A stretch of 64,000 nucleotides of DNA from Mesaphorura yosii (taxonomy: Eukaryota > Arthropoda > Collembola > Poduromorpha > Tullbergiidae): NCBI GenBank assembly GCA_009869945.1, contig WIXG01000002.1, positions 248,001-312,000 of the forward strand, given 5' to 3'. The notes beneath the pieces are model-generated. The model made no database searches and had not been told where the DNA came from. It saw only the letters and a list, made by a program, of their open reading frames with translations. A program made the position numbers and the translations under genes. Of the stretch, positions 1,614-24,283 are shown piece by piece. Each line of letters begins with the position of its first letter. Positions within the stretch are counted from its first letter, which is position 1.

Positions 1614-4358
1614 TTATGTGCACTTCTCTGCGTACTGAATGACTGACGAGAGTCGGAGCCTCTGCGAGAGGATCGACTCGGATTTCTCCGATTCCGAGTC
1701 GTCCGCTGCACGCGTTAATGGCGCAGCTGGAACGCTTTCCTGGGCGTACTTCTCAAGAATGAGGCTCGACCTCTTCCTCGGGCCGCCTAGTGAAGGTCGG
1801 CTTCGCATCGGGCGCCCGCCGTCCTGGCACTCGTCGGACAGCTCCTCGCACGACCCGTCGCTCATGCCGCTCGGGCTCGATTGCCGTGGCGGTGGGGAGG
1901 GTGAGAGCGAGACGGACTCAGAGTGCGAGAGTGGGCGCCGTGAGAAATCAATGCATAGCTCCTGCGGACTGTCTGACCTTGGCGAAGAGGAAAAGGAGTG
2001 GTGGTGGATCGGGGTCACGGAGACCGTGTGAGGCCCCAACTGGCTGGCTGCCCGTGCCTCCTTCGAGCCACGAGTCAGGGCGAGTGCGAGCACTCCACCC
2101 GACGGGTACATTGACTTGAGTCGGTCAAAACTCTCGTTACTCTCATCGTTACTGCTGTGGCTGTCACGATCGTGATCGTTATAATGCCTTTGATGCTGCG
2201 GCTGATTAACGAGTGGACTAACAACGGCGGATCTGTGCTCTTTCATCATCGCGATAGTTCGGAGCGACGACGAGCCGCCACTGCCACGAGCGTACGGATT
2301 GTAATAATGCTCGTTAACGTTACGTACTTTGCTGCTACTCTGCTGAGACTGCGATTTGAACCCGTTTCCATTCGCGATCGACAGATTTTCTGGAATGCAA
2401 TTCCTGGCTTGGCCCATTGCGTTACGCGTGTGCGTCTGCTGGTTGAACGAGTTTGAGTTTGTGTAGTGACTTGAATTAGATTTCTGCTCGCTCCTACCAA
2501 TTAGCTCAATATCATTTAGCCCGTACCCAAATTTCTCGATGGATGCGAGCACTTTGTCTCGGATGCTTGCACTCTGCATAAAGTGCTTGTCACGCTCATC
2601 AAAACTACTGCCACTTCCATTGCTCGTTTTGTGGTTAAAGCCGAATGTTTTAAAATTGATGTTTGAGTGCGAGCTACCAGAGTTAGTTCGAGTTGGAAGT
2701 ACTTGGTCACCTGACGAAGAGGCGTTGCCGTGCTGCTGAGGAAGTTTGGAGGTCACGTACAAGAAGGTCGTGCGTGATTGCGGGGCCTGGTGGACTTGCA
2801 CCGAAGGAGGCAGCATCGGGTACGGAAGTTGGTTGCCCGACGAGCTCGATCCGCCGCTGCTGCCGCCGAAGTGGTACCCATGCGACTTGGACGAAGACGA
2901 CGGGATCGTCGTCGGAAGAATGTACTCGTCTCCGGGCGAATGTGATCTTGGCGGCGAGGGCGAGGTCGGCGTCGTCAGCGGGGAGCTCTGCGATAGCGAG
3001 GATGAGAGGTCTGAGTCGCTCAGCTCCCGATTCTCCTTGTCGGAGCTGATTGGGGTCAGCGAGGTGAGTGACGACGAGGGCGAGTGCACGATGCGCTGTT
3101 CCGGGACGACGGCCACGTCATCCAGCGAATTGTGCGGTGAATCCCCTCCTGCATGCGTTTTGATGTGCGTTTCCAGTGCCTTCTTTGAGTTGAAGGTCGT
3201 GTTGCAGAGTGTGCACTTGTAAACTTTCTCGCCGTAGTGCGCAACCTGAAGAAAGGAGCCAAGCAGTTCAGCGATTGCGAATTTTCCATAATTGCGAGAA
3301 TGAGAATGAAGAACGAAGAGTGCAAAAGGAGTCGATGTCTTACCTGATGCAGTTTTAGCACGTGATTATAACCAAACGACTTTCCGCATATTTCGCACGA
3401 GTACGGTTTTTCGCCGGTATGTGTCCTCGTGTGTACTTTGAGTTGCTTCGAGCACGTGAAGCCTTTGTTACACACTTTGCATACGTACGGTTTCTCGCCT
3501 GTATGTGTTCGCATGTGGATTACCAGCTGCCCGCTCTGGATGAACGTCTTCTGGCAGACTTGGCACTGGTGCGGCCGTTCTCCAGTGTGAATCCGCATGT
3601 GGCGATGCAGCTTTCCGGAGTGCTCGAAGGCCCGCTCGCAGACTTCGCACTTGTATGGGCGTTCTTTGGTATGAATGCGACGGTGCACCGACAAATTTTC
3701 CTTCACCGAGAAACTCTTGTTGCAGTACTCGCATTGGTATGGCTTTTCTCCAGTGTGAGTGCGGTAGTGACGAGTGAGTCGTGCTGGCACTGAAATAAGA
3801 TAGGGCCATGCAATCGTTAGCTAAGAGCCTCAGTTTGGTCTATTTGCTTTCGCGAGTCTATTTAATATTAATTAGGAACCTACCAGCAAAGGTTTTGTTG
3901 CATATGTCGCACTGATACGCATCCGGGCCATTCACGTCACGATGTGAGCGAAGATGGTTCTGAAAAGTGTTTTTCTGCTGGAAACTCTTGCCGCAGAATC
4001 CGCACTGAAATCCGGTGCCGGCTGAGCCACTGCTGCTCAGCGAATTGCTTCGGTTGATGGGCGAGGCGGATCCGTGCGGACTACTCATGTCGAGTTCGGT
4101 TGACATCTTCGACAGAATTCCCATCTGCTGCTGCTGCAGCGTCGTGATTGGGTTTGGGACCATGCTGTCGTTTTTGTTGTATTGATAAAGGCTGACTTCT
4201 GGCGTGCAGATTACTTTCTGACCCTGGCCGCCAGCCGAACGTTTTGGTGACGACGATTCGTCGATATCAGCCTTGAAGAGAAAGTTTGGCGAGTGAAGAC
4301 GAACTGATGATCCTGGCGAGGTTCTGCTGCTGTTGTCGATATCGCTGTTGCTTGTCAT
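1614..4358 (-). CDS. Kr-h1: Krüppel homolog 1, C2H2 zinc-finger transcription factor
   Basis: Kr-h1 is the nuclear early-response factor that carries the juvenile-hormone signal and represses metamorphic genes in insects. The coding exons are 3884-4358, 3344-3789 and 1614-3245 (minus strand), joined by short GT-AG introns; they give 2553 nt, 850 aa. Eight C2H2 fingers are visible: residues 117-139 (FQCGFCGKSF start), 148-170 (ending PARLTRHYRTH, split by intron 1), then six more to about residue 340 joined by TGEKP-type linkers. Fingers such as SVKENLSVHRRIH, EHSGKLHRHMRIH, IQSGQLVIHMRTH and CSKQLKVHTRTH are the family signature. The long C-terminal half is rich in Ser, Asn and Gly and ends in a basic segment (GGPRKRSSLILEKYA) and a final RLRLSSVIQYAEK block. 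The start is the first ATG in the open frame of the first coding exon. Non-coding 5' exons probably lie further upstream, as is usual for this gene. Confidence 0.95.
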
Positions 4359-7300
4359 TCTCCGTTCTTAATCCAGCAAGGTAAAATTGCTCTTGCATTT
4401 AGCGCCGCCAGATTGACCATTTACGATTAAATACCTGTAACGCACGTAAAAAGGGACTTCTGTTAATAAATATTAACCATATTAGCATTGTGATCGAATG
4501 AATCCTTCTTTAATGAGGAATTCGTGCCTACGTGCAAAAAGGCAGACCAACAATCGCAATCAAAACGTACGTGTTGTATGAATCTAGGTCGTGGTTCTCT
4601 CTATTAAGAGTGCAAACGCAATTGGCAATTGGGCACGCTCAAATTCGCTGCTGCTGTTGCAGCATGACAAGTTTTGAAATTCGAATTGACATGTGACCGA
4701 CCCCTTCATAACAATGCTCAATGCTCTTCTGCAATGGCGCTTGTGATGGGGTAAGGTTAGTTTCTCGTTGCCTTTCGCAAACTTAAACTAACAATGGCAA
4801 TGGCAATAATAATGATAATGACTAATGAAGCTGAATGAAAACGTGGTTGACGGTTGTCGCTGAAAGACCCCGCGATTTATTTGCCGAGTGGTACTGACTC
4901 GTAGTACAAACGTATTTTTTTTATGGAATTTGATATTTCCCTTTGTATTTGGCAGTTGGCTATTTACATTTGCCGATTTACCCAAATTTCATGTGTAAAA
5001 TAGAAGGCTATGCCCTGTGAAGCGTGCCAATGAATGAAACAAACGCAATGTCTCCACAACGCGACGCAAATGCCATTGGACTATGTACTAGGAACGCTCT
5101 GGTCACGCTTGGTGAAAAATTACGATCACCACATTTTCCTTGAAATGAGCAAAGGTAATTAGCTTACAGCTGAAGTAGCGTCAGTAGTGACGCTCAACTG
5201 AGTGAGTCAATTTCTATACTTAGAATGCTTATCGCTTAGCCACTAAGCCATCACCTGATTCATTTACTACTAATATCGACTTCTGTCATTCTGCCATTTT
5301 CAAATGTCATTATCACGTAACAGTTCAATATAATCACCCAAAAGTGGTGGGTGTGCTCTGTGCAAGCCTTTAAATGGGTGGATTAGCAATTCCATGTAAT
5401 GCAAATGCAAGTCTGGGAAGTTTCATTTTTCAGAATTTATCGCTTTCGTTTTACGACACGCCATGAAGTCGAAGCTAAAGTCTGTCTGATACATTTTTTG
5501 TTTACCCTCCCGTCAAAACGAGGTACTTTCATACTTTGTGAGAGTAATATTTGCTCTTGACGTATAAAGCTTTGAATTGTCATTGCCTTGCATGGCCATG
5601 GACTCATGGCCGAAAGAACCCCAGCAATTCTGCGAAATAACGACATTCCACGCAGACGTAATTAACAAGGCAAGTGGTAGGGCAGGGCAGGAAATACTCT
5701 GCCTTTGCCAGGTGTTGCCCGAATGTCGAATTTCATGCAGAGCCAAAGGCATAGACAATAAGACAATATTTATTGGCAAACACAATATAGTTGCAAATAC
5801 GAAATGTGCAGTGCAAAGGGGAAGCGCGAAAGGCGAAACACTTAAATACACCCTCAAAAGCAATACCGGAAAGACCATTAAAATTCGTAGAAGCATTATC
5901 TCCAGTGCAATTCACGCAGCAAACTGCAGACGCACGGAGGTTTTATGCGTCTGCTTGCGACGAACACTGGGCTAGGGCATGGTTTCTATGTTGCACCCAC
6001 TGCATTGCTTGAGCTGTGCACAAAGAGTGAAATAGCACAAGGTTACAAAAAACAGAACTGCCAAGTCAAGCCAAACCGAGTCAAATGTGCAAAAACACAT
6101 AGAGTGATGCGAGTCAGTATTTGCAAGGGGATCGCGATTGCATGCAATGAAAATTCACAGGGGAAGATTCGCGGCTCGCTTAGCTCGTACAATGAATAGT
6201 GAAGGGCGGTGTGGGGCGAAAGCCGTGATCAGAAGTGAGTACCAAATTCGCACAGTTAAGAAGACGGATCACGAAACTTAATTTTGGTTCGCAAGGCCTT
6301 CTCTGAAGCCAATAATAGTAGTACTCTACTCTACTCGCCGAACATTACCAGCTCAACACGAAACTGGCAACCCAATCCCAGCGTGTCGCGCGTCCTCCAT
6401 TTCGCAATGCAATGCCAAAAGTACCTGAAACTAACCTCATACAAGTCTGTGCGCTAACTGTGCAAATTGATGGCTGCGCCTGGACTCAACTCAACCACGC
6501 TCATGTTAAGTGAGGTCAAGACGCAGCAGCCAGCCAAGCCAACAAGAAGGCACAGAAAAAGCTAAAGCCGGAGCTTTTGCGAATTGCGAGTATCAAACAG
6601 GCCAGACTTCGTGATATTTTACCATGGCTTTTCTCCTTTGCTTGGCGTGCCCATCTTGTCTCAATACAAATGCATGTTTACCAGTGGAATTCAATACGAA
6701 CAATTGTCGTGTGATTGGCAGCAAAAGCAACAATGCTTCACCGTTGCGGACTCAGAGCCACGATCCTTGCACGATTTTTGCATGAGTAGCATGCAAATCA
6801 TGTCAAGCCAGACGGTGTGATGGAACGGATGATTTGCACATTCATTTAGCTGTCCGAATGACTTTCGGACTTTGTACGTAAACAACGAACACGAAACTAA
6901 AATTGTTAAGAGTGTATGAATTGAATTGCCTGAAATGGTGCTCTACGTGATGGTGATGATCGTCCGTCTTTCTGCGTCATCTCATGCATACGAATGATGT
7001 ACTTCACACTTTGAATCTTTGAATTGGAAATGAACCGAATCGAAGGAGTTACAACTGACTTGACTCACGACCATGAAAAATTCTCAATGCATGAAACAAT
7101 TGAGTCAATGAGTCAAATTACAAATATTGTGCATGAATTCGCAATCGCAAATGGCATGGGCATGTCCTTTCCTTAAGGCCTCGTTTTCGTCATCAAAACA
7201 TGTACACATTGTTTTTCTTTCACGAAAACGAAGGCCATCAGCAGGCAAGCCATACTTCAGTGTGCTAAATCTCAATTCCAAAATTGCCTAGCAGCAGCAG

Positions 7301-8188
7301 CACGAATGAGGAAAAGGCTAAAGCGACCAGGCCAATCGTCGTAAGTACTTCACACAACCCTCAATCAATGTATCCTGGCGTGGCAGTGGCAATGACAAAG
7401 TCCTTCAGCTTCAGAACGTCGTGGTACCTGCCTGACTGCATGCAATTTTGAAACAATGTGCAGATGAATTTAAAATGAGTAAACAAGATTCAGCTGACTT
7501 CGACTGCTGCTTCTGCTGCAATGCAACCGTCGTTCATCACGAGAATTTTAAGTAAAGACTCCTTTCATAACCTCAATTAACATAAAAACGGCTGATCAGA
7601 CATGGCCAGTATTTTTCCATTCAGCAATCTTGCCAATTGCCACTGCCATTAATTCCATGCCCAACAAGTGACCTGCTAGCGTACATTTAATTCCAGACTT
7701 CTAATTTATTTTTGCATACAAATGTAACGCGAGGCAGTCCGGCTACTCAATGAATGAGGTGCTAATTCGCTAATTCGTTAATTGCCGTTTTCCAGTACCA
7801 ACTCAAAGTCCAGTTCTTGGACACAATTTGCATTTTGTACTTGGAAAATCCGGTCTTGCGTCCGCTGCTGCTGAAAAATGCACCTTTGACTTGTTTCAAC
7901 GCTCACAAATGACGCCGAGGCAGTTTGAGACGCTTTCACCGAATTTCATTTCATTACCGCATTGCATCACTCCAGACTTGCACCAGACGACCGAGATGAG
8001 GGACCACCGAGCGAGATTTTTATTCAGGCTTGTCCAGCCAGTGAAGCGCTCATCGTTCCAATTTTCTCGTGCATTTTACATTCCCTGCCCTGCCTTGGAG
8101 TATCGTATCACGGCTCCCGTCATCATTAATTCCGTGCACAACCCAATATAGCCACAGCCAGGGTGCAATCCTCTTTTTTAGAATTCAG

Positions 8189-8200
8189 GGCCTCCACGTG
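8189..8200 (+). promoter_or_regulatory. Putative juvenile-hormone response element (GGCCTCCACGTG)
   Basis: The 12-mer GGCCTCCACGTG contains an E-box (CACGTG) with the CTC extension. This matches, as I recall it, the core of the kJHRE bound by Met/SRC at insect Kr-h1 genes. It lies 3.8 kb upstream of the Kr-h1 start codon. Function is inferred from motif and position. Confidence 0.5.
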
Positions 8201-11200
8201 TAGGAAAACAATTTTTTTTAACTTGTTTTTCTCAACCCGTGGTACGACGAATTCTGTGCAACTACGACACGACCTCATGCTTGCCTACATTGTAACAGTA
8301 GTGAATAGTGATTCATAACCACAGTGAACTCCGTCCTCGTACTCGTACTGTGCGGATGCTTAATGCTGGGAAAATGCTGAATGCAACGTAGTCAGCGTAC
8401 ACTTTTAACTCGGCGCAGCGTATTACAGAAAGTACCTAACTATACTGAGTCTAAACATTCGTAAATAGACTGCACTTCGTATGTACACGCTGAGCTGTGA
8501 GGAATCCAAGACTCTACCCCGACCTCTCATACTACACACAAGTTTATGCTACACGTGCCGTCGACTGCCCCGGACAGAGCATTTCGGCCCAGAAAATGTT
8601 CAACTCTCGGCTCTACATGGGACAAAAGTAGGCCTTTCCCAATGTAATCTTTTATAATACCTTCACCCCAACAAAACACAGTCACTATGCATGCACGTAG
8701 TAAACACATTAAAACCTTCGCCAATGCAATGCGGGCAATTGCTAATGCTATAAATGCTACTACAGTTAATTGTGATCAGTTACCTAATTGAGCTACCAGT
8801 TCAGGTTATTTACGTATGATTAATTCAAAATGCATGAATGATGACCGTTCTAAAAATAAGCCATGAAATCCAAATTCCAAAGATCATCTGCAATCATCCC
8901 GTAGTTAATTGTGAAGGATTGTGAGGGATTGTGTGATAGCTGAGCCTGAGCCTTGGCCTTAAATGCCTCTGCTTTCCGCCTATTTGTCAATTGCCCTTGC
9001 CCAAAATTCTTTGTAAGGCGATGCGGTGACCCCGTTGAAGGGAAAATTCCGTAGCGAACGGTGAAAGTCTGAAGACGCGACGGTATGAGACTTGACATTG
9101 AAATGGTACTTACCGAAAGATTCTGAAAGTTGTGATGGAGCTTAAAGCAATTGAGTTGATGAGGACTTCCAAGATTTGCTTGCCTTCGAATAAATTGATG
9201 AGGCTTGGGCTCGTCTCTTATCAGAAAAATATAGATAAAGCTCTGTTTGTCCTGTGCGGCACAATTCACATTTTGTCTAGCCTTTCACTTAATTGTCACT
9301 GATTACTGGGCAGGGCACAATGTCAACTGTGCGAATTGCCCGTGCACCGTTCCGAAAGGTTCTCACTTGTGCGGATCCGGGGCAACAATGGAAAGGTGAG
9401 AACTTGCCAGCCAAGTCAAAGTATGAGACGGTAAAAATGCTGCGCGTCTGTAGGAGAAGCGGATCTCACGTCGTCGTGTTGTGTTGTGTGTGGACTTGAC
9501 CAACGTTGTATTCTGACTGAGTTGAGACGACTCGACTGCCAAAGCCAAAGTCGCTTGTACGGCTCGTAGGATGAATGGGATTTTACTACAGACAAACTCT
9601 TCTACGTGGCTCGTTGCTCCACTGGCTGGTGGCTTGACGCTCGACTCGACAATGTTACTCTTTCTCCTTAGTCGCTCTGGTCTGATGCGTTGCGTTCTCG
9701 CTATTACATAATTCGCCTCAGCCTCGTCTTGAACATGCACATACGAAATGTTTTGAAATTCTCAACAGTGCAGCGCAGCAGCGACGATGCGATGCGTTTA
9801 TGCGTCTGAAAGAAAGGTAAATAGCACAATGATAATTAGCGATTTAATTCCGGCTCAATTCGGTTACTCAGGTCAATGACGAACACGAGACGGCACTTCA
9901 ACGCTTTAATGCCTGCAATGTGCCTTTCCCTTTGCCCTCGCTTTGCTGTGCCCGTGCTTGCCGTGTGGCAGTGACAATATGGGCATGGACAATCTGACAG
10001 TTGTCAATTGCTACTACACTGCAATTGCCATGAAGTGGCCTAGTGTTCTAATGAGATTTCTATTTGCACAAAGTTCAAGTGTACTTACTTCAAATGACAA
10101 CGAAAGCGGCTCGTGATTTTGTCTCGCACCTAGCGCAGATGCAGAATTGACGAAATTGGCTAAATTCTCACTGGATTCTTGACTTTTTTAAATGTAGACT
10201 GGAAAAATAGACTTTAGACTTTATTTTGCTGCACCAAATTATTAATTTTGACTGAAAACGTGTATTTTACTTTCTCTACTCGAAAATAGACTCTGTCAGG
10301 TTTTCACCGTCTTTTTGTCTCAGGTTAACTGCTAACGCTTATAGTTTAGTTTCTCTGCAAATATTGACTGAATGCACTAATCGAGCACTGGACCACGACT
10401 GGATCCTTGCGACCCGAGTTGAGTTGGTTTTAACGTAATTTTGGCCGTAGCCGCAGTGTGCAGTCGTCCGTGCGTTACTAGAAAGCAAATTGTGCGTCTG
10501 TCTCAATCTCGCCTTGCCTTGCCGATCTGATCTGAACTGAACGCGTTGGGAGCCGACGCATTTATGCGTTCGTTCTTGGGTTGATTCAACTTTTTCTTCG
10601 TTGCCGTGCGCTGGCAGTAAGAGGCCAGGCTTGGGCTTGGCGTTCTATGTTGATGCGTATGAGAATGGGTTCTTCGTTCTGCGTAGCCCCGTGCAGTGCG
10701 TAGAGATTTTGCTGTGGAGTGGCAGTGGCAGGCATTCTTCCTCGGTCTCCATACATAGCCAGCAGCCCTGGCGTGGCGTGGGTTTGGGTATTTGGATAAC
10801 CCAGAGTGTCAACTTCCCCAACGCCACGCCACGTCAAGCCAAGCCATACTCAAAGTAACTTCATACATTAAATGTTGCCGTATGTGCGCCTAAAAAGGAG
10901 TCAGTCAGTCAAAGGGGTCATCCACATGCCAGGCCAGCACGAAACTTTCCATAGACCTGAATTTTGGCATTGTACTGCTCATTATAAGGCGGTGGTGATA
11001 TGCCAATGTCTAAATTATGCGGGTGCGTGTAAGCTGTACACATTAAACGCACATGCACTATTCACTATTGTATTTGTACACCAGGACGTACCATTTGCTA
11101 TGAATCATGTATCGCCATTTCTAAACGCATTACGCACAAAGTGCGTGCACTGCTTGAAAATCTTGCCAAAATCACACCATGGTCAAATGAGTTAAGCTAT

Positions 11201-11988
11201 CATATGCTTATTGAAAGCATGCTCGATTCTGATTGACTGGTTGCAGACCTAATGACTTGAACTTTATTGAGACTCGTTGCTTGCTTGTTGCTCTCTCTTC
11301 CTCAGACCGCCATATCAATTTGACGAAAATTCATTGTGTATGACGCACAAGTAACAAGTGCATGTCTAACTCAATTGTGAGTATGTTTGAAGATTTGATG
11401 ATATTCCACTTTTTTGCTGCGAGTTGACTTAATAATTAAAGCAAGCCGATCGAAATTGGATCAGGGCACGGGCACATAAATTTCTCAGGTAGGCAGGCTC
11501 AGAATCATGCAACGTAAAGTCGAAGTCGTAATCAAAGTGCAGTTCTGCAGGCATCTACACATTCGCATTGTGGGTCCGCGTAACTTCTTAAAATTTCGGT
11601 GCAGAGCTTATGAAGCCATGAAGCCGAGTTCATTAGTTTTTTAATTATAAAGCGGCCTGTTATTTGCGTGCAAGATCCAAGCATCCAAGTGTATGTTTCG
11701 AGTTCCATGACATTTATCAAAGCCGGCAAACGCACAAGATGAGAATCTGGCCTCGCACGCACTCCGCCCAACGCGGGGCAACACCTTCACCTTTGCTTAT
11801 ACGATGGCTTGGCTATAATAATGAAGCGGTTATCCGTACAGAGATTTATTTCAGCTTTGGTTCGCGTTAAATGCAGAATAGAGCAGAGAGTGCCAGGCCA
11901 GGCCGTGGAACGAGTTGTACTACTTTGTCTACTGCTGCGGTGATAGTCTTCAGAGCGAGACTCCTCCTCAGACACGTTCCGGACTCTT

Positions 11989-11997
11989 CTCCACGTG
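11989..11997 (+). promoter_or_regulatory. CTCCACGTG motif upstream of Kr-h1
   Basis: Second copy of the extended E-box, here within the near-palindrome TTCTCCACGTGGAA, 7.6 kb 5' of the Kr-h1 ATG. A possible Met binding site by motif only. Confidence 0.35.
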
Positions 11998-14299
11998 GAA
12001 ATCCACGACCTTCGACCTCAAATTCAAAGCTGTGCTATTGCACTCTCGAAAACTCGTCTTCTCTTTTCACACTCTTGGCATTTTTTGTTAACTATGCAGC
12101 TCAACTGAAACTCAATGCTCTGCCTGCCTGCGTGCACGCACGCATGTATGCAATCGTCGCTTCATTCTCAAGCGTTCGCTGTATCGCATTCCATATTCCC
12201 TTGCCATACAAGAGCAAGAAGCAGATTTCGTTCCTTCGTACTCGTACACGAGATTCGCGTACATTTTATTATTGTTGCCCTATTCGCTTATTCGCCCTGA
12301 TGCTGTGCTAATAAATGTTGTGATGTTGGGTTTATGAAATAAATTTCACACGTTTGGCTAGCAATCTAGCCTAGAAAAGTACAACGCGAACTTGATTGTA
12401 GCAGCGTTAGCGTCAACGATGAGTTTTGTTTTGACAGCGCTTGTAACAACTGGAATTTTTCCATGAAGGCCACGATTCACGAATCACGGGTTTCAGATCG
12501 TGATCGAAGTAATTATTCATGTAACGCGATCGCGATTCTGTGGTCCGGTTTGGCGGAAAGTCTGGTTAATAGCTGAAGTCCGTCGTCCAATCATCGCCTG
12601 AGCCTGAGCCATACGTAATCTCAAAGTTCAGGGAGATCGACATCGGCAACTCATTTTCGTCGTTGATGATCGCCACAGATGTTGCAGCTGTAATTAAAAC
12701 CGAGACCATTCGTAGTATTGTTATGCTGCATGTTTAAGGAACAGTGTAATTGTAATTACAGGCAAGGAATTTGTGCCTGCCTATTTCTTCGTCCAGCAAG
12801 CTTACTGAAACAAAATTCCTCAGGTAAAATACGAAATACAGGAATAAATCAAGAACAAGACTGCGAAGAAGAAACAGCGTTTGGTCCTGTTTCTTAATTC
12901 TTCTGCGTTCTGAGAGTTGAGCGAGTCAGACACGCACACGCAAGATGCAAGATATAAGACACAATTTCAAACGTCCTGAATATTTTCCCACACATCAGCT
13001 TTCACGGGTCAAGCCCGCCAAGGTTCAACCTTGCTCCTACTTCCATTTTTCATTTTCCAATCTCGGTCCACCGAGACACCAAATGGTCAAATAATTGGGC
13101 CTCGATCTCTCGATGAGTTCATTACCAAAAAGCACGTACGCGGCTGGGCAGAGAGAATTTTCAACCTTAAATCATCGACATTCCTGGGAAAGCCAACCGG
13201 CCAGATTTAAGCCTGAATAATGGCCATTACTCAGTTAAATTTAACCTGCTCACCTAAAACGAACGAGCTTTTCACGGCGCAAACGCAAATTATGATATCA
13301 TACACCGATACATTAATCATAATCAATTACGATCGAGTATTAATCACTGGCAACAGTAATTCCTAATTCGTACTTAGATCGACAGCGACGGCTTCAAGTT
13401 GTCAATTTGCATTTGACAGAAAGACTTTGTGTCATGTACCTCCGCCTGCCAAGCTGAAGTGCTTTCAATTAAATCACATGAGGACTGCACGAATGCATGC
13501 GCCTGCACTTTGAAGTCGCATTCGTCAACACTCAAGACTTGGCAGTCAGAAGTCAACATGGATCATTGAAATGATCAATGTATTATGGGACCTGCTTTCC
13601 AGGTCTGTCAATGTTGAGAGCTTGCACGTACTTCGTACAGGAACTGGCGAACGAGCACTGATGATTGATTCGTGATGGTGCTTACTTTACCTGAATGAAC
13701 CCGCATCAACGTTGACATCGACTGCCGACGTCATTCGCAAATAATTTTGTGGATACGTGCGGCAAAATCTGTCTAGTCAGTATCCAGTCAGCTCAAATTT
13801 ATAATCATTCAACCCGAAAATAATCTTTCCAATCGCACGTACACACTGCATTGTCCACTTTTTGGAATTTTGGTTGTTTCAGGTATTTTATTTTCGATGC
13901 CAGCAGACAGAGCATCAATCAGCGATCTGTTTAGCATTCGAGCAACACGTGCATCGACCTGGACTCTGAACTGAATAAACCCGGCGCTTGATTGCATCAA
14001 CATCATCATCCAAACAGGCAGTAAACAAAGGAAAAGTGGAGCAAACACAAAACTCTGTCTGCATTGTACAAGAAAGTCAAAGGGTTAAGTAATCTTTTCT
14101 GGAAAACTTCGGGGAAGTTTTTATGCGTTTGCAATGAATGCATTGCATTCGTACGCTTACGCATACGCATCGCTGCCAAAGATGCGTGGCTTCTTCCTCT
14201 TTCTTGCGTATGCCGCCGACACAATGGGCCGCGTACGTTGGAAGACGACAGGCAGGCAGAAAATAGTTGAGAGAGCATAGAACTCTGGTGCGGTGCTTA

Positions 14300-14308
14300 C
14301 ACGTGGAG
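14300..14308 (-). promoter_or_regulatory. CTCCACGTG motif (minus strand) upstream of Kr-h1
   Basis: Third copy, read on the minus strand (same strand as Kr-h1) as GGACTCCACGTGTAAG, 9.9 kb 5' of the Kr-h1 ATG. Motif-based inference only. Confidence 0.35.
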
Positions 14309-17300
14309 TCCTTGGACTTATTTCTACGATAATAATAATATTTTCGTGGCCTGCTTTTATTTTGGTTCTTCTTGGTTTGACTCGACTTACCAACGCATTT
14401 GCATTGGGTGCGTACGCGTACGCGGCAACGCGCGTAAATCATGTTCCATTTCAGGACGAGCAAAGCTAACTAACCGTAATCGTAATGAAAGTGTGTTAAT
14501 TCCTCACCACGAGCAGATTAGCAGCCGTATTGCTTGCTTGCACCTACCCATTAAAATATCCATTACACGAGGCGATGGCTCGGCTCATCTCTTGACGACT
14601 TTATTTTAGTGTCAACGTGCTCTAGTTTAGCTTTAGCAGCTTTGGCTTCTAGCTCTGGCTCTTAGCCGCTGCACGCGTTATTTACGCGTGCACGCGCCTT
14701 CGAGATAGAGAAAGTAGGCCAGGCCAGGCTGCTTCGGGTGCGTGCGTGTGCGTAAGTATGAATTCATTGGAATTATCCACGGTGCCGTGCCAATTTGCTT
14801 GCCAGAAGCAAAGCGTACAGAAGGAGAAGTCATAAATAAAAATGTGTCTTGATGAAGTACGACAGTGAGAGCAACAAGGCAAGGCTCTCTTTAAAGAGCC
14901 AAAGGATGTAATTACGATGACACTTTTATGAGGTAGCTTCTTTCATCTTCCTGTCGCATCTTTTCTCCATTTATTAGCATTACAGCTCTGGATTATGATT
15001 ATGCCAGGCAGGGAACAGGCAGTAGAGTTTTGTTGACCTCAAATCCTTGCCACGCCGCAGATTTTGCTTTACTTCCTCGGGCCTGGGCCAAACCCATCCA
15101 CATCCAGTCACACGCATTTTTTGGCATTTATTTCCGTATTGCACGCACTACGCACGCATAAATCTGACTTGGCTTGGCTCGATTCGGCTTCTTTTCTTGG
15201 CAAATGCGCTCGGCCTGGCTTTTAATTATTGCATTACTCAGATTTCACTTTCACTCTTTTCTAATGCCGGTCGGTTGCCTTTGCGTAAATTACACACACG
15301 CATCATGCGTATGAAAAGAATTCTTTATCCACTCGATGATCAATGGCTTCGCTGGCTGTCTGATGGCGGACCTTGGATTCTCATGACTCGCAAAGCATCT
15401 CATTGTGCATCGTATCAAAATGTAATGTAATCTCATCTTGACTCTTGAGAGATGAGATTTGCCTTTGGCAATTCTCTTTAAAAGCCACGCCATGTCCTTC
15501 AACTTGATGCTGTCGGTGCTGGTGCTTCCTTATTCTTAACTCTTTCTCTTCTCTTCTCTTGTTTCCTTTGTCCGTCCATCTTTTAATGTATTACATAATT
15601 CTTCAGCATTCACTTGTACTCGCATTTATGTCTTCACCGTGTTGAGCCTCGACCTTGAAATGAAGTATTTTGGGTTGACCGACCGAAGAAAGAAAAAGTT
15701 ATTTCATCGATGCAGCACCGACACGTACAATGCATGCATACAAATGCGTACAATGCTAAAGTGATTCGAATTACAAATTACTCGTGTATGGCTACAATAA
15801 ACTCTTCTACACGCATACAATTGCGCGTCCGCTGGATCAAGAATCAAGGAATTGTACTTTTCCAAAAATAGATTAACGATCATGAGACCGGTCCACACAC
15901 TCGTGGCCATCACAGGCATAGTGGTAGTAGAAACGCGCAGCGTATAGGTAAGAATGCTTCTAGAAGAATTTAATGCAGAGTTTATCCGTGATGTGATTCC
16001 ATTCCTGCTGTTGCTGTTTCTGCTGCTGCGTTGTTGCATGGTTTCAATGAACTCGACTCGACAACACGAGCCGAGCCTCTCGAGATTTGCTCTTGCTTTG
16101 CTCTTGCTCCACTTCTTCTTTCCTCTTCTCGCATCAACAAAACAATAAAACGTCCCAAAACTTCCAGGACGAATTGAGACGCATTTTATGCATCCACGCG
16201 ACGACCGGAGAAGTAAACAAACCAGGTTCAGGCTCTTTACTGTAAATACATTCAGCGCCTTCTTCCGTATGCAGGTGCTTAATTTGTTGGCAGTAGCAGT
16301 TAATACACACGAGCTTTCGATTGAATGGAATTTTCTATTTATTGGAACGGAACTAACTTGACCTTTTACCAGCCTATCTCTTTCATTGCAACGAGTTATC
16401 AAATCGGTTTGCCATTAATTGCTTGCACGAGTCGAGCGCCTGCCTGCTTAAATGCACTACTTCAGTCTCTCTTATCAGGTTGAAAGAAGGCGTGAGCACG
16501 ACCGACCCGATGATGGAAATATTTCGTTCAAAGTGCAGCAGGCCAGGCGAGGCCAGATGATCAGAATGCAAAATAGCCACGACACAGTCACGAGTTAATT
16601 TAATCAAACGACACATGAGTCAAACTTGACAAGTGCCCTGCTATGCCACACAGGATCCTGAATTCTAAAACTTCTACAGGTCGCAAAGCCTCGCACGCTT
16701 TTTAGTCACACGAAGAAATTCAATGATTCGCATGGATGCAAAATGCAAATTAGAATTTGTTATTTCCGGTTGCCCTTCTACTGTCTACCTCAAATCATAT
16801 TTGCAATTTGCAATTCACAATTTCAAGATGAGTAAATTGCAGACTGCGACTTTGGCAAGCGAGCACACGCATTTTTTCACGCAAGGCACAGGCAAACTTT
16901 TGGTAATGGCATTGACAACTTGCTTGCTGCTACTTGTACGTTGAATGAAATGAGATGACCTTTACAGCAAATTAGGTGAGCAGCATGAGCACAGATGCCA
17001 AATGTGATGCGCTGTGTGTAGTGCGGATGCGAAAGGTCGCCATCGCCAATTTAAAGGGATGCACTGTAGCAACGCAAAATTTACAGTTAACATTAACCCA
17101 ATCAGTGTGTAATTGCCAATAATCGCTGGCAGCCAGGCAGGCTAATGTGTCTGCTCTTGAATTTTGCACGCAAAAAGCACGTCGGCATGGCGTGCGTGTA
17201 CACTTGACATTGTAGACATGAGCCTAACTTTGACCCTGTGCGCAGTGTCAATGAAATTTTCGCAAACTGATGTGAATTTTTGCTGCTCGGGACAGGAATC

Positions 17301-17725
17301 GCTCAAGATCATGTACGAAATAGCTGAGCTGAGTTTCTTTTGTTCTCTGCTCGTGTAAATACGCGTACGCATGGGACAAGTTCTGGTTTGGTTTCTCGCC
17401 CTGTACGCTTTGTATTTATGCGTAGCCTACGCACGAGCCGAGCTCTGACCTTTGAGCAACAGGAATTAAGCCGTCGCAGGCGTTCTCTGTTTTCTATTGC
17501 ATTGAACTTTATTTTTTGTAAATGGTAAATGGAAAAACGGCGAGTTTCATAAATATTCATAATTTATTGTGAAATCCACTCTTCATTAGTGTGCGGATAT
17601 TATTTATGACTGTAATAACGCCATTTTGGAAGGTTAACCCTCGATTCAGACAATAAATTAGATTCTGAGCGAGCAATGTAATGCAATACGAGCAAGTCCA
17701 ACATTCCAAACACGCTGGTGCACGA

Positions 17726-17734
17726 CTCCACGTG
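17726..17734 (+). promoter_or_regulatory. CTCCACGTG motif upstream of Kr-h1
   Basis: Fourth copy of the extended E-box in the Kr-h1 upstream region (GACTCCACGTGCCGCG), 13.4 kb from the start codon. Motif-based inference only. Confidence 0.35.
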
Positions 17735-20700
17735 CCGCGACCTGACCTTTCGTTCAATACGGCAGACGGCAGTCACATTATGACCAACATGTTATCCATG
17801 CAATCTGCAATGAAATCGAAGGAATTCAATGCAAAAACTGGTAGGGAATTATGAAATAATTGTTTACATTGATTTCTAGAAGAATTGCTTCACAATTTCG
17901 GAATTCGACATGAAGGGCAGGCGCAGTTCGAGCATGAGCTCCAAGCCAATGTCAATCGGAATCCATAAATCTGTTAATGAGAGAAGCACCTGTGATGCGC
18001 GTGGAGATGTGCTGAAGATTCTCGAAATACGTGTATAGACCACGGAATTATGAATCATAGTAAATAATATTAATAATAATACTACGAAATACGAAATATG
18101 AAATTCAGGAATTCTCAAATGCTAGATACACGCACACGCAAGACGAAATGTAATAACTGCCACGATGCCATGCCGGTTTGCATTTCCCGAACTGCCAGTG
18201 CATTGCATTGCTCTTTGCAGCGTCCAGCGCAGCAGATGTGCATCGGTGCATTTTGCGGTGAGGCATGCATGGGAAAGGAATTCTACGTCCACGTACGTAT
18301 TTCTTATTCGTATTTACATAATTTAATCTTGAGGCTGGAGAAAGAGACATAAAATTGATGATGATGAGTATTTTTATTCATGCAAATGCCTGCGAGCTGC
18401 GAAGAATTAAACTCTACTCGAGCGAGAACAGAGCACCAAGACCGACCAAATTGAACTTGAACCGAACACCTTTCAGCCGCACCACGTCGAGAGTCGAGTG
18501 CTCTTCACTGCTCATCTTAACGAATTCAAATTCTTGGTCTGGTCTGGCCTTCCAGCAAAGCAAGTAAATTACATTTGTCATTCCATTCCATCTCATTTCG
18601 GAGCGACAGATTATGATAATCTTCTCCAGTCGCCTTCGCCTTGGTCTTTGGAATAACCGCAAGCCAAGCCAACGAAACCACGCAGTTAATTATTGGTGGC
18701 TCAGACCAGACGATTCTAATTACCTGCACTGTGCTCGTCAAACGCAGTGCAGCGTAGCAGCGCAACCGGATCATAAACGGACAACTCAGTTTTTATTCGT
18801 GTCTTGTTCATATTCATAATTCAAAACTTGTATATTGTAGAACTCTCGCATTAATTAAATTGCATTTTCTTTATTTTATGCAGTACGCATAGTAAACGTG
18901 CGTAGGCTCGCTCGAGTGCTTCATTAGCTTCAGGTCATGGCCACGCCATTGCCAGAGTCACGCCAAAGCCTGAATGCGTTGTACGCAGGTCAACTCTCCG
19001 CAAGACACACGCACGCACTTTACTTGACAAACCAGAAAATTAAAAACGAGCTCTTTTCTCTTTGTAATAATTTAATTGAGATTATGTCCAAAGTGCATCA
19101 TTTTAGTAAAAGTGCGTAGATTAGAGCGCCTGCGACTGCGTGAAAAGAAACAGGTTTAAGGGAATTAATTCTAATCGAATTGTCTGTGAACCTCGCCTCA
19201 TTTTCTGTGGCGTGGCTGCCACAATTCTGCTCTGGCTCATTATCATTTGCAACCAGATTCGTTCGTATTCACGCATTCATATATTTTAATGAGTGAAAAG
19301 AATTTCATACAGAAATTACGCGTAATGTGTGAGGTAAAGGCAAAGAGGCATTATTGTGATTGGTACGTGGAACGTACGCGTACGTGTACGTGAAACATGT
19401 TGCGTTTCGCACTCGCAATGAATAAATCCATAAAAAATTCTAATGAGTGGTGGAAGAGGAAAGACAGGCTTCACAAAGATTTTATTAACGCCAGCTCGAT
19501 AAGCGATACGTGAACGCAATGCATGTGGAGCGATGAGAGATGAATTTCGAAAACCAGCACCAAGCCAAGCCGCCGACTCGAAGTAGAAGAGAAGTTGTTC
19601 CATGTTGTGTTACGACTGCTACGCATAAACAATGGTGCGTAATGTGAAATGAGTTTGTCAAGCCCTGCCATGCAGCTTGTCTTGTCTTGTGATGTAATAA
19701 CCCTTTCGAAACCAGCAGCATAGCCGTGCTAAATGGCAGCCTGTAAATGCTTGATGGCTGCTGCATCGCAAAGCTGAATAATAAATAACCAGGCGAGAGA
19801 ATGTTGTTTTATTTAAATAAAAGAGAGTCCAGGGACATTGAACTCGACTTTGAGCCGACACGTGCGGGGGAGGAAGGATCCGATCGACTAGTAAGGAGCA
19901 TTGCATTGCAATGGAAAGTGCGTACGAGAAAATGCATCAAACTGCCAAGCGAATAGCCAAGCCAAGCAATGAATTGGCTGCCACTGCACTCGCGTTGCTG
20001 TTGCACTTTGGATTGTTCTCTGATGCTTCCATTCAGCCGAGCCGAGCCAAGGATTTCCATTTTCTCTTTGAAAGGGGATGTGGAGTGTGGAATGAATGTG
20101 GGAATATTCTCGGGTTCATGGCTGTACGAACGCGTACTCGTACGCACTTCCTCCAGTCTGTATGCGTATGCGTGGATTGTCTCCAACCCTCTTCGAGAGT
20201 GAGTGGAGTCGACCGCGACGGTCTTCCAAAAAATGGTTCCTTCTTTTCACCTTCAATGTCCTTTACCCCTCCGATTTGATCTTCATTTGACTTTGAGCCG
20301 AGTCCGAGCCATGGATTGTGAATTCCGCCCTGCCTGCGTGCCCTGATCATTGTTGTTGCTGCTCTTGTTGTTATACTGTATTCAGGGTTCTGGTGTTGCC
20401 ACATCCGCAGCGCAGACACGGACACGGTCGGTATTCATGTTCTGCCATTATTTCAATTATTTCACCTTTTACGTTCATGGATCGTGGAACTCGAATTTGT
20501 AAAGTTACGAATACGATAGGATTTTATGGATCCATTACATTTTGCTGCTTTTGACTTGCTTGCAGGCTTCGCTTCACGAAACTGCAAACTGCGAGTCACG
20601 AACATGATACGAGAATGCAACACGTGAAACTGAAACTTCAAAAATGAGGACTGCACAATTTTAATGACCATTTCTACTATTTTATGGCTTTCCATTCCTT

Positions 20701-21172
20701 TTTGCCTGGAAACTTTTTACATGTAAACGAGCGGAGAAGATGATTAATTTCTTTGTTCGTTGTTCCTGATCGTGGTTTCAATGTTCTGAAGGTCCTGAAT
20801 TTTATGAGCACTGTGCCAAACCCCTTCGCAATTTGAAGGTATGAAAACCACCTCTTTTACTGCATCTCGATGCGGCGAACGAATTTGTGCGTGGGATTAC
20901 GAAATAGACATGACAGAAGAATTGAGAATTTTTGAAGCACTGAAGCTCAATTTCTTTTGCATAACTTTTGCTTCTTCCATCTGGATTTGAATTGATTTAG
21001 CTTCAAATTGACTTAAATTGCCTCCATCCGAATTGATTAATGGAATTCAATCCTCGAGAAATGCGTCAAATCTAAAATCATCATTGGCATTCACACTTTC
21101 ACGCTTGTTCCGAGAAACAGTCATAATTAATGGCGTAATAAAATTATTATTAGAATCAACATGTTTTAGATA

Positions 21173-21720
21173 CAGGGTTGGAAAAAATCAATAAATCGGA
21201 TTTTTTTTATTTAATCATGATTTTTTTTTATTTGATTTTTTCCCAATTTTTTTTCAAAAAACGCTAAAATACGGCATTTCGCGCATAATTTGGTCTCCTT
21301 ATAAAGTTTTTCAATGAATCAGGTCATCGAGAAGCTATTATTGTGATAATAAATCCAAAATTTTAGCGAAAACAATCTGAATTAACGTCTAAAAATTTCA
21401 ATGGCCACGAAGATTTCATTTTTAAAAAGATGTTAGGCTATTAATAAATGCTTTTATTCCATATTTGGAGTGTTTCTTTTGCAAACATCACTCAACTTTA
21501 CAGAAAAAGTTTTAAAAATTGCCCAAATATGGGCAAATTTTCTCATTTTCCGGGATTTTAAAAAATCAAAAAAAACCCTGATTTTTTATATTTTTTCCCG
21601 GTTTGGGCCTAAAAGCAGAAAGAATTACGTCTTACCTTATTTAAGATCGATTTACGAAAAAATCATAAAAATAAAAAAAATCGTTGATTTAATCGTTGAT
21701 TAAATCAGGTGCCAACCCTG
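21173..21720. mobile_element. Non-autonomous hAT-type DNA transposon (MITE), 548 bp
   Basis: The element begins CAGGGTTGG and ends CCAACCCTG, a perfect 9-bp terminal inverted repeat. It is flanked on both sides by TTTAGATA (21165-21172 and 21721-21728), an exact 8-bp target-site duplication. An 8-bp duplication with a CAG-starting terminus is the hallmark of the hAT superfamily. The subterminal regions are AT-rich and partly inverted (runs of gattttttttattt near both ends). No transposase is present. One 77-codon open frame (21470-21703) is Lys/Ile/Phe-rich with no recognisable domain and is probably chance. The intact termini and duplication suggest a fairly recent insertion. Confidence 0.9.
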
Positions 21721-21728
21721 TTTAGATA

Positions 21729-23188
21729 TATATTAATTTTCACTGAATAAATTAAATAGTCAATTCAAAGGCTTGCGACAGAGGAAAAGACTGAAAAGAA
21801 AAGGCGCATCTGCCGACTCGGTTCCACCACCTCGCCGCTGATGCGATGCAAGATGCAATGAAGGGCAGGGCAGGACAGTACAGACCCGAGAAAACACATC
21901 TGAAATCTGAAGAATTGTGCATTGCATCGAATCGAGGATGAATGCATTGCATTGAATCAATAAAATTGTGCAACTGAAACCGAATCGGAGCGTGTGCATG
22001 TGTCTGGAAGAGAAAGGTCTCAAAGAAAGGAGACAGTCAGACAGTTTTTATTATTAGCAGGCACAAATATCATATTTAATGTGGTAATAATGTTTAATGC
22101 ACGTGCAATACACGGTAATAAATGTGCGAGTGAACAGAGAATTGATCATTTAAGAATAGAACGCGAATATGATGCACATCACATCGATTTTTAATTGCGT
22201 ATCAAGTCCTAATTCAATTACTCGATTCAATTTTTATTTTTGGAATAATTCGATACTAAAATACTGAAATTTAACGAGTCTGCGTTCGCATTCTAATTCT
22301 AATTCTGAAATTGTAAACTTTGAAATAGAATTACAAACGACGGATGTGGCTGTGATTGAGAAAACCTGAGTTGTGTTGAGTTATGAACGTTATGAGCCTG
22401 ACTTCTCTGATTACAATGAGTGTGAGCATCGTGAGTGGCCCTCTGTGTGCTCTCACAAACACTCGAATCTCCACTCCAACCAAGCCTTGCGGGTCTCTCC
22501 ATGCTCTTCCGCAGCAAATGCACGCTTTAGAGCAGGATTTCAATGTTTTCCAGTGATTACTGGCTCCCGGGACCCTTAATACCATATCTCAATACAAATT
22601 ATCACGCGCATAAGTATTTTACATCAATTTTAATCAGTGCCCGTTCCTGTCGAGGTTCCGGCGCCGAATTACTTTCAACGGACGGCCGAAAGCCAAGCTG
22701 CATTCTTGCCTTCCCAGCACAAGGTACAGACATTGAGCGTTGAACCTTTGCCATTTGGTAGGGTCATTGTTGACCTACATGGAAGCCCATGATGCTCAGA
22801 GCGTATGAATTCTATGAATTACACGCTCTCCACACAGGATACGACCATGTCTTGCTGTGGACGTCTGAGGCTTTCTACCTTCATGGCACTTTTACGCTTA
22901 AGTTGGCTTCGAGCCTTCAGTTTTACATACAATGAAAGGATGTAGTGTCGTTGATGAAGTATTGCTTGCTTTTACCAGACAGTTGATGAAGATAAAACAT
23001 CGACTTGGCATGACATGAAGAAAGTAATTAATTCCCAATATTGTGTAATTCTAAAAAGCATCTTGTATTTTATTCAACCAACATGAAGAAATTTTCATAA
23101 ATCCATTTTCATATGAAGGAATATGAATCAGGTTTACATATAATGAAATCAGATGAAGGGAGAGAAAAATATTTCTAAGATCGCTATC
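21729..23188. other. Gene-free spacer between hAT element and SmB
   Basis: No coding region, RNA gene or strong repeat that I can support. It lies 3' of SmB (minus strand), so the right end may hold the SmB 3' UTR. Confidence 0.45.
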
Positions 23189-24283
23189 TTAAAAATTTCC
23201 GCCTGGTCCAGGAGGTCTGAGCATGCTTGGAGGCGGTGGCCCACGAAGTCCCTGCGGCATTGGAGCGCCTCGACCCATCATACCTGCAATATAAACCAAA
23301 AGATTACTGTGTTATTTCTGATTTTATTTTCGAGTAGGTGGTGGGATGGACAAAATAGAAAGGAAAGAAGTTGCCACTAAATTAAAAATGGAAACACGGA
23401 ATCTAATAAAATCTAATAACTCCTATTACTCCATAACGTACCTGGAGGCATTCCGGGTGGCGGAATCATTCCTGGTGGCGCACCTCTTCCAGGTGGTGGG
23501 ATCATTCCAGGCGGCATGCCTAAAACAGATCACAACAGCAGTTTAACGGACTTTCTCGATTGCGATGTTGCTAATGATAAGTAGAAGCCATACCTGGTGG
23601 ACGAAGCTGTGGTTGCGCCGCAATAGATGGACCACCAGCGCCCCTTCCAGGTGCCATCATTTGTGGAGAGGGTCCGCCAACACCTCGAACCGGACCTTGC
23701 AGTCCTGGAGCGACTGGACCTGTAATGAATCAGATTTAAGAAATTGTGCCTTCCCTTGAAAGCAAAATAATGTTATAAGTCATACCTGTAGGTAACGGCA
23801 TGCCGCGTCCCGCAGCTCTGCCCATGCCAGGACCTGGAATTGCACCAGGAATCGGAACCCGTGGCAGGCCCTCATCTGGAGGCGGAGGACCTTCAACCGT
23901 AATCGAGACAATTCCTTCTCCTCTTAATAATACAAATCCAAGCGTTCTTTTCTCCTCTCTGTCTTGGCCTGCTTTTGTCTTCGATTTGATTTTACGAAAT
24001 TCTTCACAATCTCCAAGGATTAGATTCATGTGCTTATCAAATGCTGCAAAACACAAAATGAAAGATCTATTCCTAATTCACTAACAGTTTAAGTGAAAGT
24101 ACCTTTAAATGTGCCAATAAATGTTCTTGAATCCTGGAGCATGACACGGATTCTATAGTTGATGTGCTGAAGCATCTTGTTATTCTTGCTGATCGTCTGT
24201 AATAGCAAAAGAAGTTAACACAACACGTATCACATTTCGGAAGGAAAATGATGGATTAGTGGGTCGTACTCGTAACTTACCAT
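23189..24283 (-). CDS. SmB: Small nuclear ribonucleoprotein SmB/B'
   Basis: This is the core Sm protein B of the spliceosomal snRNP heptameric ring that binds U-snRNA Sm sites. Coding exons (minus strand): 24281-24283, 24103-24196, 23786-24043, 23594-23719, 23442-23519 and 23189-23283; total 654 nt, 217 aa. The first coding exon is the ATG alone, followed at once by GTAAG. The N-terminus reads [18 protein letters not shown], then the Sm1 motif, then [20 protein letters not shown], and Sm2 with [18 protein letters not shown]. The C-terminus is a proline/glycine/methionine-rich tail with PPGM and PPPGRG repeats (exons 4-6), as in animal SmB, which serves as a platform for GYF and WW domains. 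All five introns are GT-AG. Its length is close to that of the animal family, and nothing is broken. Confidence 0.95.

What the first reader, a model, noticed from the sequence alone, without database searches (positions are those of the whole stretch)
8189..17734. Four CTCCACGTG motifs in the DNA upstream of Kr-h1: candidate juvenile-hormone response elements
The 9-mer occurs at 8192-8200, 11989-11997, 14300-14308 (minus) and 17726-17734, all in the 19-kb gene-free interval 5' of Kr-h1. By simple base odds about 0.14 copies are expected there on both strands. The first copy is the full GGCCTCCACGTG that, from memory, is the core of the Met-bound kJHRE of insect Kr-h1 genes. The only other copy I noticed in the window is inside a protease exon (56564-56572). 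If real, a distributed set of four sites would show the hormone input of Kr-h1 conserved in this species.
Basis: partly seen in the sequence, partly recalled or inferred. Interest (0 to 1): 0.78.

Follow-up and report, generated by a model that had tools for sequence, protein, structure and literature searches.

The report
Likely hormone switch sites beside Kr-h1
The DNA in front of an arthropod growth-control gene (Kr-h1) carries four copies of a short word that in a beetle is part of the landing site of the juvenile-hormone receptor, more than chance predicts, which suggests the same hormone switch here but does not prove it.

Summary
CTCCACGTG lies at 8192+, 11989+, 14300- and 17726+, all in the ~18.8 kb between the Kr-h1 start codon and the stop of the next gene (SmB-like), plus one copy at 56564. 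The 93.0-Mb genome holds 752 copies, so about 0.15 are expected there (Poisson P about 2e-5). E-boxes without the CTC flank are not in excess (5 against 3.8). The gene fits Kr-h1 (eight C2H2 fingers), and the genome encodes a Met-like bHLH-PAS protein and a Taiman/SRC-type protein. The 9-mer is inside the Tribolium Kr-h1 element bound by purified MET-TAI and inside an oligo named Kr-h1 in a Helicoverpa paper. Site 8192 shares 14 bases with that oligo, site 17726 shares 12 with the Tribolium element, and a further E-box (19859) shares 12 with an Aedes MET-FISC selected site. Best reading: a dispersed kJHRE-type set through which Met-Tai switches on Kr-h1; a new member of a known kind. Binding, hormone response and conservation were not testable. 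GCCTCCACGTG is not enriched genome-wide, and other bHLH factors bind CACGTG. The species is unknown.

The parts
8188..8201 (+). Site 1: GGGCCTCCACGTGT (CTCCACGTG at 8192-8200), 3.8 kb upstream of the Kr-h1 ATG
   Evidence: 14 bases identical to the Kr-h1-named oligo in the H. armigera paper PMC4944123
11989..11997 (+). Site 2: CTCCACGTG, followed by CGACCTTCGACCT (tandem nuclear-receptor-like half-sites), 7.6 kb upstream
14300..14308 (-). Site 3: CTCCACGTG (next base T), 9.9 kb upstream
17726..17737 (+). Site 4: CTCCACGTGCCG followed by CGACCTGACCT, 13.4 kb upstream
   Evidence: 12 bases identical to T. castaneum k-JHRE; 20 copies in the genome, control 7
19856..19867 (-). Further candidate E-box, CCGCACGTGTCG, 15.5 kb upstream; 12 bases identical to the selected Aedes MET-FISC site MFBS1
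   Evidence: (7 copies in the genome, control 9); noticed after the fact
8552..8557 (.). Other E-box in the interval
13946..13960 (+). Other E-box in the interval, CACGTG-N3-CGACCT
3884..4358 (-). Kr-h1 coding exon 1 (ATG at 4358; finger 1 and start of finger 2)
   Evidence: intron borders inferred from GT/AG and open frame, chosen among eight open combinations by finger completeness
3344..3789 (-). Kr-h1 coding exon 2 (rest of finger 2 to finger 7)
1614..3245 (-). Kr-h1 coding exon 3 (finger 8, C-terminal region, stop)
4359..23188 (.). Interval between the Kr-h1 ATG and the stop of the SmB-like gene; no Pfam match in any of the 19 open frames of 100 codons or more listed there; of the two flanking genes only Kr-h1 has its 5' end facing it
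23189..24214 (-). Neighbouring SmB-like snRNP gene (LSM domain, Pro/Gly/Met-rich tail), same strand as Kr-h1; exon borders approximate
   Evidence: the name SmB is recalled

Best explanation
The four CTCCACGTG copies, perhaps with the MFBS1-like E-box at 19859, are a dispersed set of kJHRE-type response elements for Kr-h1. Proposed working: a sesquiterpenoid hormone (JH or methyl farnesoate) binds Met; Met pairs with Taiman/SRC; the heterodimer binds the CTC-flanked E-boxes 3.8-13.4 kb upstream of the Kr-h1 start codon (15.5 kb for 19859) and raises Kr-h1 transcription from a promoter in the same interval. Shown here: the sites, their excess, the gene, the two receptor-type genes, and word identity with published elements. 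Inferred: binding, hormone dependence, which sites act, and the promoter position.
For: Excess over the genome: 4 against 0.156 expected, P 2.2e-5. The excess is in CTC-flanked E-boxes: 4 of 18 E-box sides against 1.98% genome-wide, P 3.8e-4, while the other 5 E-boxes are near the 3.8 expected. The C-box CACGCG is not in excess: 3.1 per 10 kb in the interval and in the 200-kb sample. Published MET-TAI-bound Tribolium k-JHRE contains CTCCACGTG; a Kr-h1-named oligo pair in a Helicoverpa paper contains GGGCCTCCACGTGT. [quoted passage not shown] Contiguous flank match to the three published sequences is better in the interval than in background: mean 3.9 against 2.1, Mann-Whitney P 0.013; 6 or more matched bases in 3 of 9 against 2 of 53, Fisher P 0.019. 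Met-like bHLH, PAS-A and PAS-B domains, and a bHLH_NCOA (Tai/SRC) domain, are in the genome. Both neighbouring genes point left, so of the two only Kr-h1 has its 5' end facing the interval.
Against: The longer GCCTCCACGTG is not enriched genome-wide (31, control 26). Sites 2 and 3 match the published sequences by 3 and 4 flank bases only. CACGTG is bound by many bHLH factors (general knowledge). The sites lie 3.8-13.4 kb from the ATG and the promoter is unmapped. The 200-kb sample had a higher density than the genome average (P 6.9e-4 at that density). CTCCACGTG is common genome-wide: 752 against 290 for the permuted flank CCTCACGTG; I suspect partly from coding sequence, not tested. No relatives were available for a conservation test.
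Confidence: 0.58

Rival explanations
1. The E-boxes are real regulatory sites but serve other bHLH proteins (Clock-Cycle, Myc-Max, Hairy/Hey, USF types), so their presence says nothing about hormone input.
For: CACGTG is shared by these families (general knowledge). An ARNT-type bHLH-PAS gene is in the genome. E-boxes of all kinds are 2.3-fold dense in the interval (9 against 3.95, P 0.02).
Against: The excess is confined to the CTC flank seen in a published Kr-h1 JH element, and Kr-h1 is a known Met-Tai target in insects.
Confidence: 0.25
2. Chance cluster: four ordinary copies of a word that is common in this genome.
For: 0.05 such clusters are expected in the genome by chance; 88 distinct 9-mers reach 4 copies in the interval and with the flank left free P is 0.015. 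The 200-kb sample held 4 copies against 1.6 expected. The 11-mer is not enriched.
Against: The word was named beforehand from insect Kr-h1 elements and the cluster sits at Kr-h1 itself: P 2.2e-5 by the genome rate, 6.9e-4 by the sample rate. The outer sites match two published sequences over 14 and 12 bases.
Confidence: 0.15
3. The copies came in with a repeated or duplicated element.
For: One ~550-bp dispersed repeat does lie in the interval (about 21160-21723).
Against: None of the four sites is in that repeat; the 25 scored matches (of 26 candidates) of the interval in the genome all fall on it, though the tool scores only the best candidates and skips very common words. Flanks of the four sites do not resemble each other by eye, and the few 20-25-nt repeats found inside the interval do not cover them.
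Confidence: 0.02

Closest known systems
kJHRE of Tribolium castaneum Kr-h1 (TCGCCTCCACGTGCCGTTTCA; PMC8683598, passages)
   Same: CTCCACGTG core beside the same gene; kJHRE in promoter region and first intron of that gene (PMC4214675, introduction passage); site 4 shares 12 bases
   Different: Here four copies over 9.5 kb; binding unproven; only site 1 has GCC before CTC
Oligo pair named Kr-h1-F/R holding GGGCCTCCACGTGT, in a paper on Helicoverpa armigera (PMC4944123, abstract line and primer-table passages)
   Same: Site 1 is identical over 14 bases
   Different: Only the oligo letters were seen; the other searched terms EMSA and ChIP do not occur in the text, so its use and its place in the gene are not known to me from the paper
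MFBS1, selected Aedes MET-FISC site (PMC8683598, passages)
   Same: E-box 19859 shares CCGCACGTGTCG
   Different: An in vitro selected site, not a Kr-h1 element; match noticed after the fact
Candidate JHRE in the Daphnia vrille promoter/enhancer (PMC5667737, passages)
   Same: A JHRE proposed by sequence in a non-insect arthropod

Membership tests
kJHRE (Kr-h1 juvenile hormone response element) | Canonical E-box CACGTG with CTC 5' flank | tested here: met
   4 of 9 E-boxes in the interval
kJHRE (Kr-h1 juvenile hormone response element) | Longer core, GCCTCCACGTG | tested here: inconclusive
   Only site 1 of 4 has it; the 11-mer is not enriched in the genome
kJHRE (Kr-h1 juvenile hormone response element) | Located upstream of, or in the first intron of, Kr-h1 | tested here: met
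   All four between the Kr-h1 ATG and the next gene; promoter against intron not resolved
kJHRE (Kr-h1 juvenile hormone response element) | Bound by Met-Tai | not testable with these tools
   Needs EMSA or ChIP
kJHRE (Kr-h1 juvenile hormone response element) | JH- or MF-dependent transcription through the site | not testable with these tools
   Needs a reporter assay
kJHRE (Kr-h1 juvenile hormone response element) | Conserved in related species | not testable with these tools
   The tool states that this genome has no relatives held (note)
Kr-h1 protein | Eight C2H2 fingers (insect form; seven in the crustaceans of PMC12897451) | tested here: met
   850-aa model; eight fingers counted by eye in the translations; finger numbers
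Kr-h1 protein | KxFSVKNLxVHRR motif (as printed) in the third finger of insects | tested here: met
   KSFSVKENLSVHRR in finger 3 (motif); our sequence has one more residue, E, than the printed motif
Kr-h1 protein | Orthology by tree | not tested
   No arthropod protein set is held; overall likeness to insect Kr-h1 is recalled
Met (JH receptor) | bHLH, PAS-A and PAS-B in one gene | tested here: met
   Three frames within 1.5 kb on C398: HLH 4e-9, PAS 2.8e-9, PAS_11 3.9e-9; that they are one gene is inferred, and the assignment to Met rather than another bHLH-PAS is by recalled resemblance, no tree
Met (JH receptor) | Hormone binding | not testable with these tools
   Needs a binding assay
Taiman/SRC | NCOA-type bHLH with PAS | tested here: met
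   bHLH_NCOA 7.8e-23, about 1.2 kb from a PAS_11 match of 3.5e-19 on C12

The most novel reading that the evidence does not exclude
The kJHRE core at Kr-h1 is older than winged insects. In an arthropod without detected insect odorant receptors, Kr-h1 is governed by a spread-out array of Met-Tai sites of mixed type (Helicoverpa-like, Tribolium-like, Aedes-selected-like), some of them paired with nuclear-receptor half-sites (CGACCT/TGACCT) that could let Taiman/FTZ-F1 or ecdysone signals act at the same elements.
Probability: 0.22. Interest if true: 0.68.

Novelty: new member of a known kind. Interest (0 to 1): 0.42.

Why it matters
The Met-Tai to Kr-h1 step is central to juvenile-hormone action in insects. 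If these sites work, the DNA side of that step is recognisable by sequence in an animal that may lie outside the winged insects, and Kr-h1 would be read by several dispersed elements. That gives a short list of exact sites to test for hormone response in a non-model arthropod.

Tried and rejected
Repeat origin of the sites: disfavoured. Hidden genes in the interval: none of the 19 open frames of 100 codons or more listed there gave a Pfam match (6, 10, 3), and Rfam at gathering threshold gave nothing in the window. C-box CACGCG clustering: none. Genome-wide enrichment of the longer GCCTCCACGTG: none. Genome-wide enrichment of CACGTG-N3-CGACCT: none (10, control 17), although 2 of the 10 are in this interval; the pairing was picked after looking, so it is kept as an unexplained note only. 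FTZ-F1-like sites near E-boxes: 3 against 1.1 expected, not convincing. Lineage: no 7tm_6 odorant receptor match (the tool's control genomes had none either, so absence is not proven); four weak odorant-binding-protein-like matches; no COX1 match in the assembly, so no mitochondrial placement. Eight fingers point to an insect-type Kr-h1; lack of odorant receptors points away from winged insects; unresolved. Kr-h1 peptide strings were not found in the paper library. The sigma-70 scan near the ATG is not informative for an animal. A PDB search with the Met-like PAS-B frame hit CLOCK, BMAL, ARNT-like, Cycle, Period and HIF-type chains and does not single out Met.

Full report
What is there. CTCCACGTG occurs at 8192-8200 (+), 11989-11997 (+), 14300-14308 (-) and 17726-17734 (+), and once more at 56564-56572 (-) inside an open frame of 236 codons. 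The window is C2:248001-312000 of a 93.0-Mb assembly in 1127 contigs. A further copy lies at C2:245791, 2.2 kb left of the window, on the 3' side of Kr-h1.

The gene. The minus-strand stretches 4358-3884, 3789-3344 and 3245-1614 join with GT/AG borders into an 850-residue protein; one search gave eight open combinations and I took the one that keeps the fingers whole. It has eight C2H2 fingers, counted by eye. Its third finger holds KSFSVKENLSVHRR; a 2026 paper gives KxFSVKNLxVHRR as a Kr-h1 motif in the third finger of insects, with eight fingers in insects and seven in crustaceans including Daphnia (PMC12897451, passages). Likeness to insect Kr-h1 beyond that is recalled; no tree was made. 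The next gene to the right has an LSM domain and a Pro/Gly/Met-rich tail ending near 23189, SmB-like by recall, on the same strand. So of the two genes beside the ~18.8 kb, only Kr-h1 has its 5' end facing it. A possible splice acceptor just above the ATG (around 4435; sequence printed) suggests a separate upstream non-coding exon; this is inference, and the promoter is not mapped.

Is it more than chance? The genome holds 752 copies (334 + 418; reversed string 372) and 19,000 CACGTG. In 4400-23735, 0.156 copies are expected and 4 are seen, P 2.2e-5; 4 of 18 E-box sides carry CTC against 1.98% genome-wide, P 3.8e-4; the other five E-boxes are near the genome rate (5 against 3.8). In the stricter 4359-23188 P is 2.0e-5. 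With the rate of the first 100 listed copies, about 6.8/Mb over an interpolated 14.7 Mb, P is 1.1e-5, and among those 100 of 752 no other three lie within 10 kb. Against this: a 200-kb sample of 20 stretches held 4 copies where 1.6 were expected, and at that density P is 6.9e-4; 0.05 clusters like this are expected in the whole genome by chance; 88 distinct 9-mers reach four copies in the interval, and if the flank had not been named in advance P would be 0.015. CTCCACGTG is commoner than the permuted flank CCTCACGTG (752 against 290). I did not separate coding from non-coding copies.

Match to published sequences. The k-JHRE of Tribolium Kr-h1 used in EMSA with purified MET-TAI of Tribolium and Aedes is TCGCCTCCACGTGCCGTTTCA; the same passage gives MFBS1 GCCGCACGTGTCGTTGG (PMC8683598, passages). 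An oligo pair named Kr-h1-F/R in a Helicoverpa armigera paper holds GGGCCTCCACGTGT (PMC4944123, table passage; species from the abstract line); the terms EMSA and ChIP do not occur in that text and the use of the oligos was not found. Site 8192 is identical to the latter over 14 bases, site 17726 to the Tribolium element over 12, and the E-box at 19859 to MFBS1 over 12. Against 53 background E-boxes (43 of 43 from loci L017-L041, and 10 from the rest of the window), the nine interval E-boxes match these three sequences better: mean contiguous flank match 3.9 against 2.1, P 0.013; six or more bases in 3 of 9 against 2 of 53, P 0.019. Sites 2 and 3 match by only 3 and 4 flank bases. A random-flank simulation gave a far smaller P (none of 200,000 draws reached the observed sum), but real E-boxes match better than random flanks, so I rely on the former. 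Genome counts: GCCTCCACGTG 31 (control 26), CTCCACGTGCCG 20 (control 7), CCGCACGTGTCG 7 (control 9). The 19859 match was noticed after the fact.

The receptor side. A PAS_11 search returned 16 places. On C398 three frames within 1.5 kb give a Met-like bHLH, PAS-A and PAS-B; on C12 there is the NCOA-type bHLH of Taiman/SRC (E 7.8e-23); C46 holds an ARNT-type bHLH. These take up 5 of the 16 places; the other 11, most on short contigs, were not classified, and the family also rings in bacteria, so some may be contaminants. No CTCCACGTG lies in the 10 kb fetched around Met or around Tai.

How it most likely works. Hormone-bound Met pairs with Taiman/SRC and binds the CTC-flanked E-boxes, raising Kr-h1. 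[quoted passage not shown] Every step after the presence of the parts is inferred.

Extra pattern, unexplained. CGACCT or TGACCT starts 9-21 bases after the E-box start at 11992, 13946 and 17729: five half-sites within 30 bases of the nine E-boxes where 0.6 were expected, none beside the ten other E-boxes of the window. CACGTG-N3-CGACCT occurs 10 times in the genome (control 17) and two of these are here. [quoted passage not shown] The pattern was picked by eye after the fact, so it is a lead only.

Lineage. No 7tm_6 match (not a proof of absence), four weak OBP-like matches, no COX1 match in the assembly. Eight fingers favour an insect-type Kr-h1; lack of odorant receptors argues against a winged insect. 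I could not settle this.

Print search. In the listings, abstract starts and passages seen I saw no report of a kJHRE at a non-insect Kr-h1. These are partial: listed were 4 of 4, 30 of 160, 24 of 25, 40 of 64, 20 of 118, 11 of 11, 6 of 7, 12 of 71 and 15 of 19 papers, and most subscription papers, including Kayukawa 2012, are not held.

Verdict. Real, correctly read, and plausible; a likely new instance of a known element type, awaiting a binding or conservation test.

Noticed in passing
window 11992-12018, 13946-13960, 17729-17748: CGACCT/TGACCT half-sites just downstream of three E-boxes, twice as CACGTG-N3-CGACCT (10 such in the whole genome); possible composite bHLH plus nuclear-receptor elements.
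   Followed up: partly
window about 21160-21723: A ~550-bp dispersed repeat (25 scored matches, 73-99% identity) with 25-nt inverted arms inside it at 21209-21233 and 21669-21693, 80% complementary; may be a small non-autonomous mobile element.
   Followed up: partly
C2:245791 (L019:7791): A further CTCCACGTG near Kr-h1, on its 3' side, followed by CCTG; beside a mitochondrial-carrier-like frame (recalled name).
   Followed up: no
window 23189-24214: SmB-like snRNP gene (LSM domain) with a Pro/Gly/Met repeat tail (18-bp tandem repeat at 23449-23515).
   Followed up: partly
window 31187-31657 and 49405-51301: Potassium-channel-type genes at two places: Ion_trans_2 match for the first, the second by eye from the translations.
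   Followed up: no
genome G000: PAS-domain matches on several short contigs could be bacterial contaminants; no COX1 match and no 7tm_6 odorant receptor match in the assembly.
   Followed up: partly
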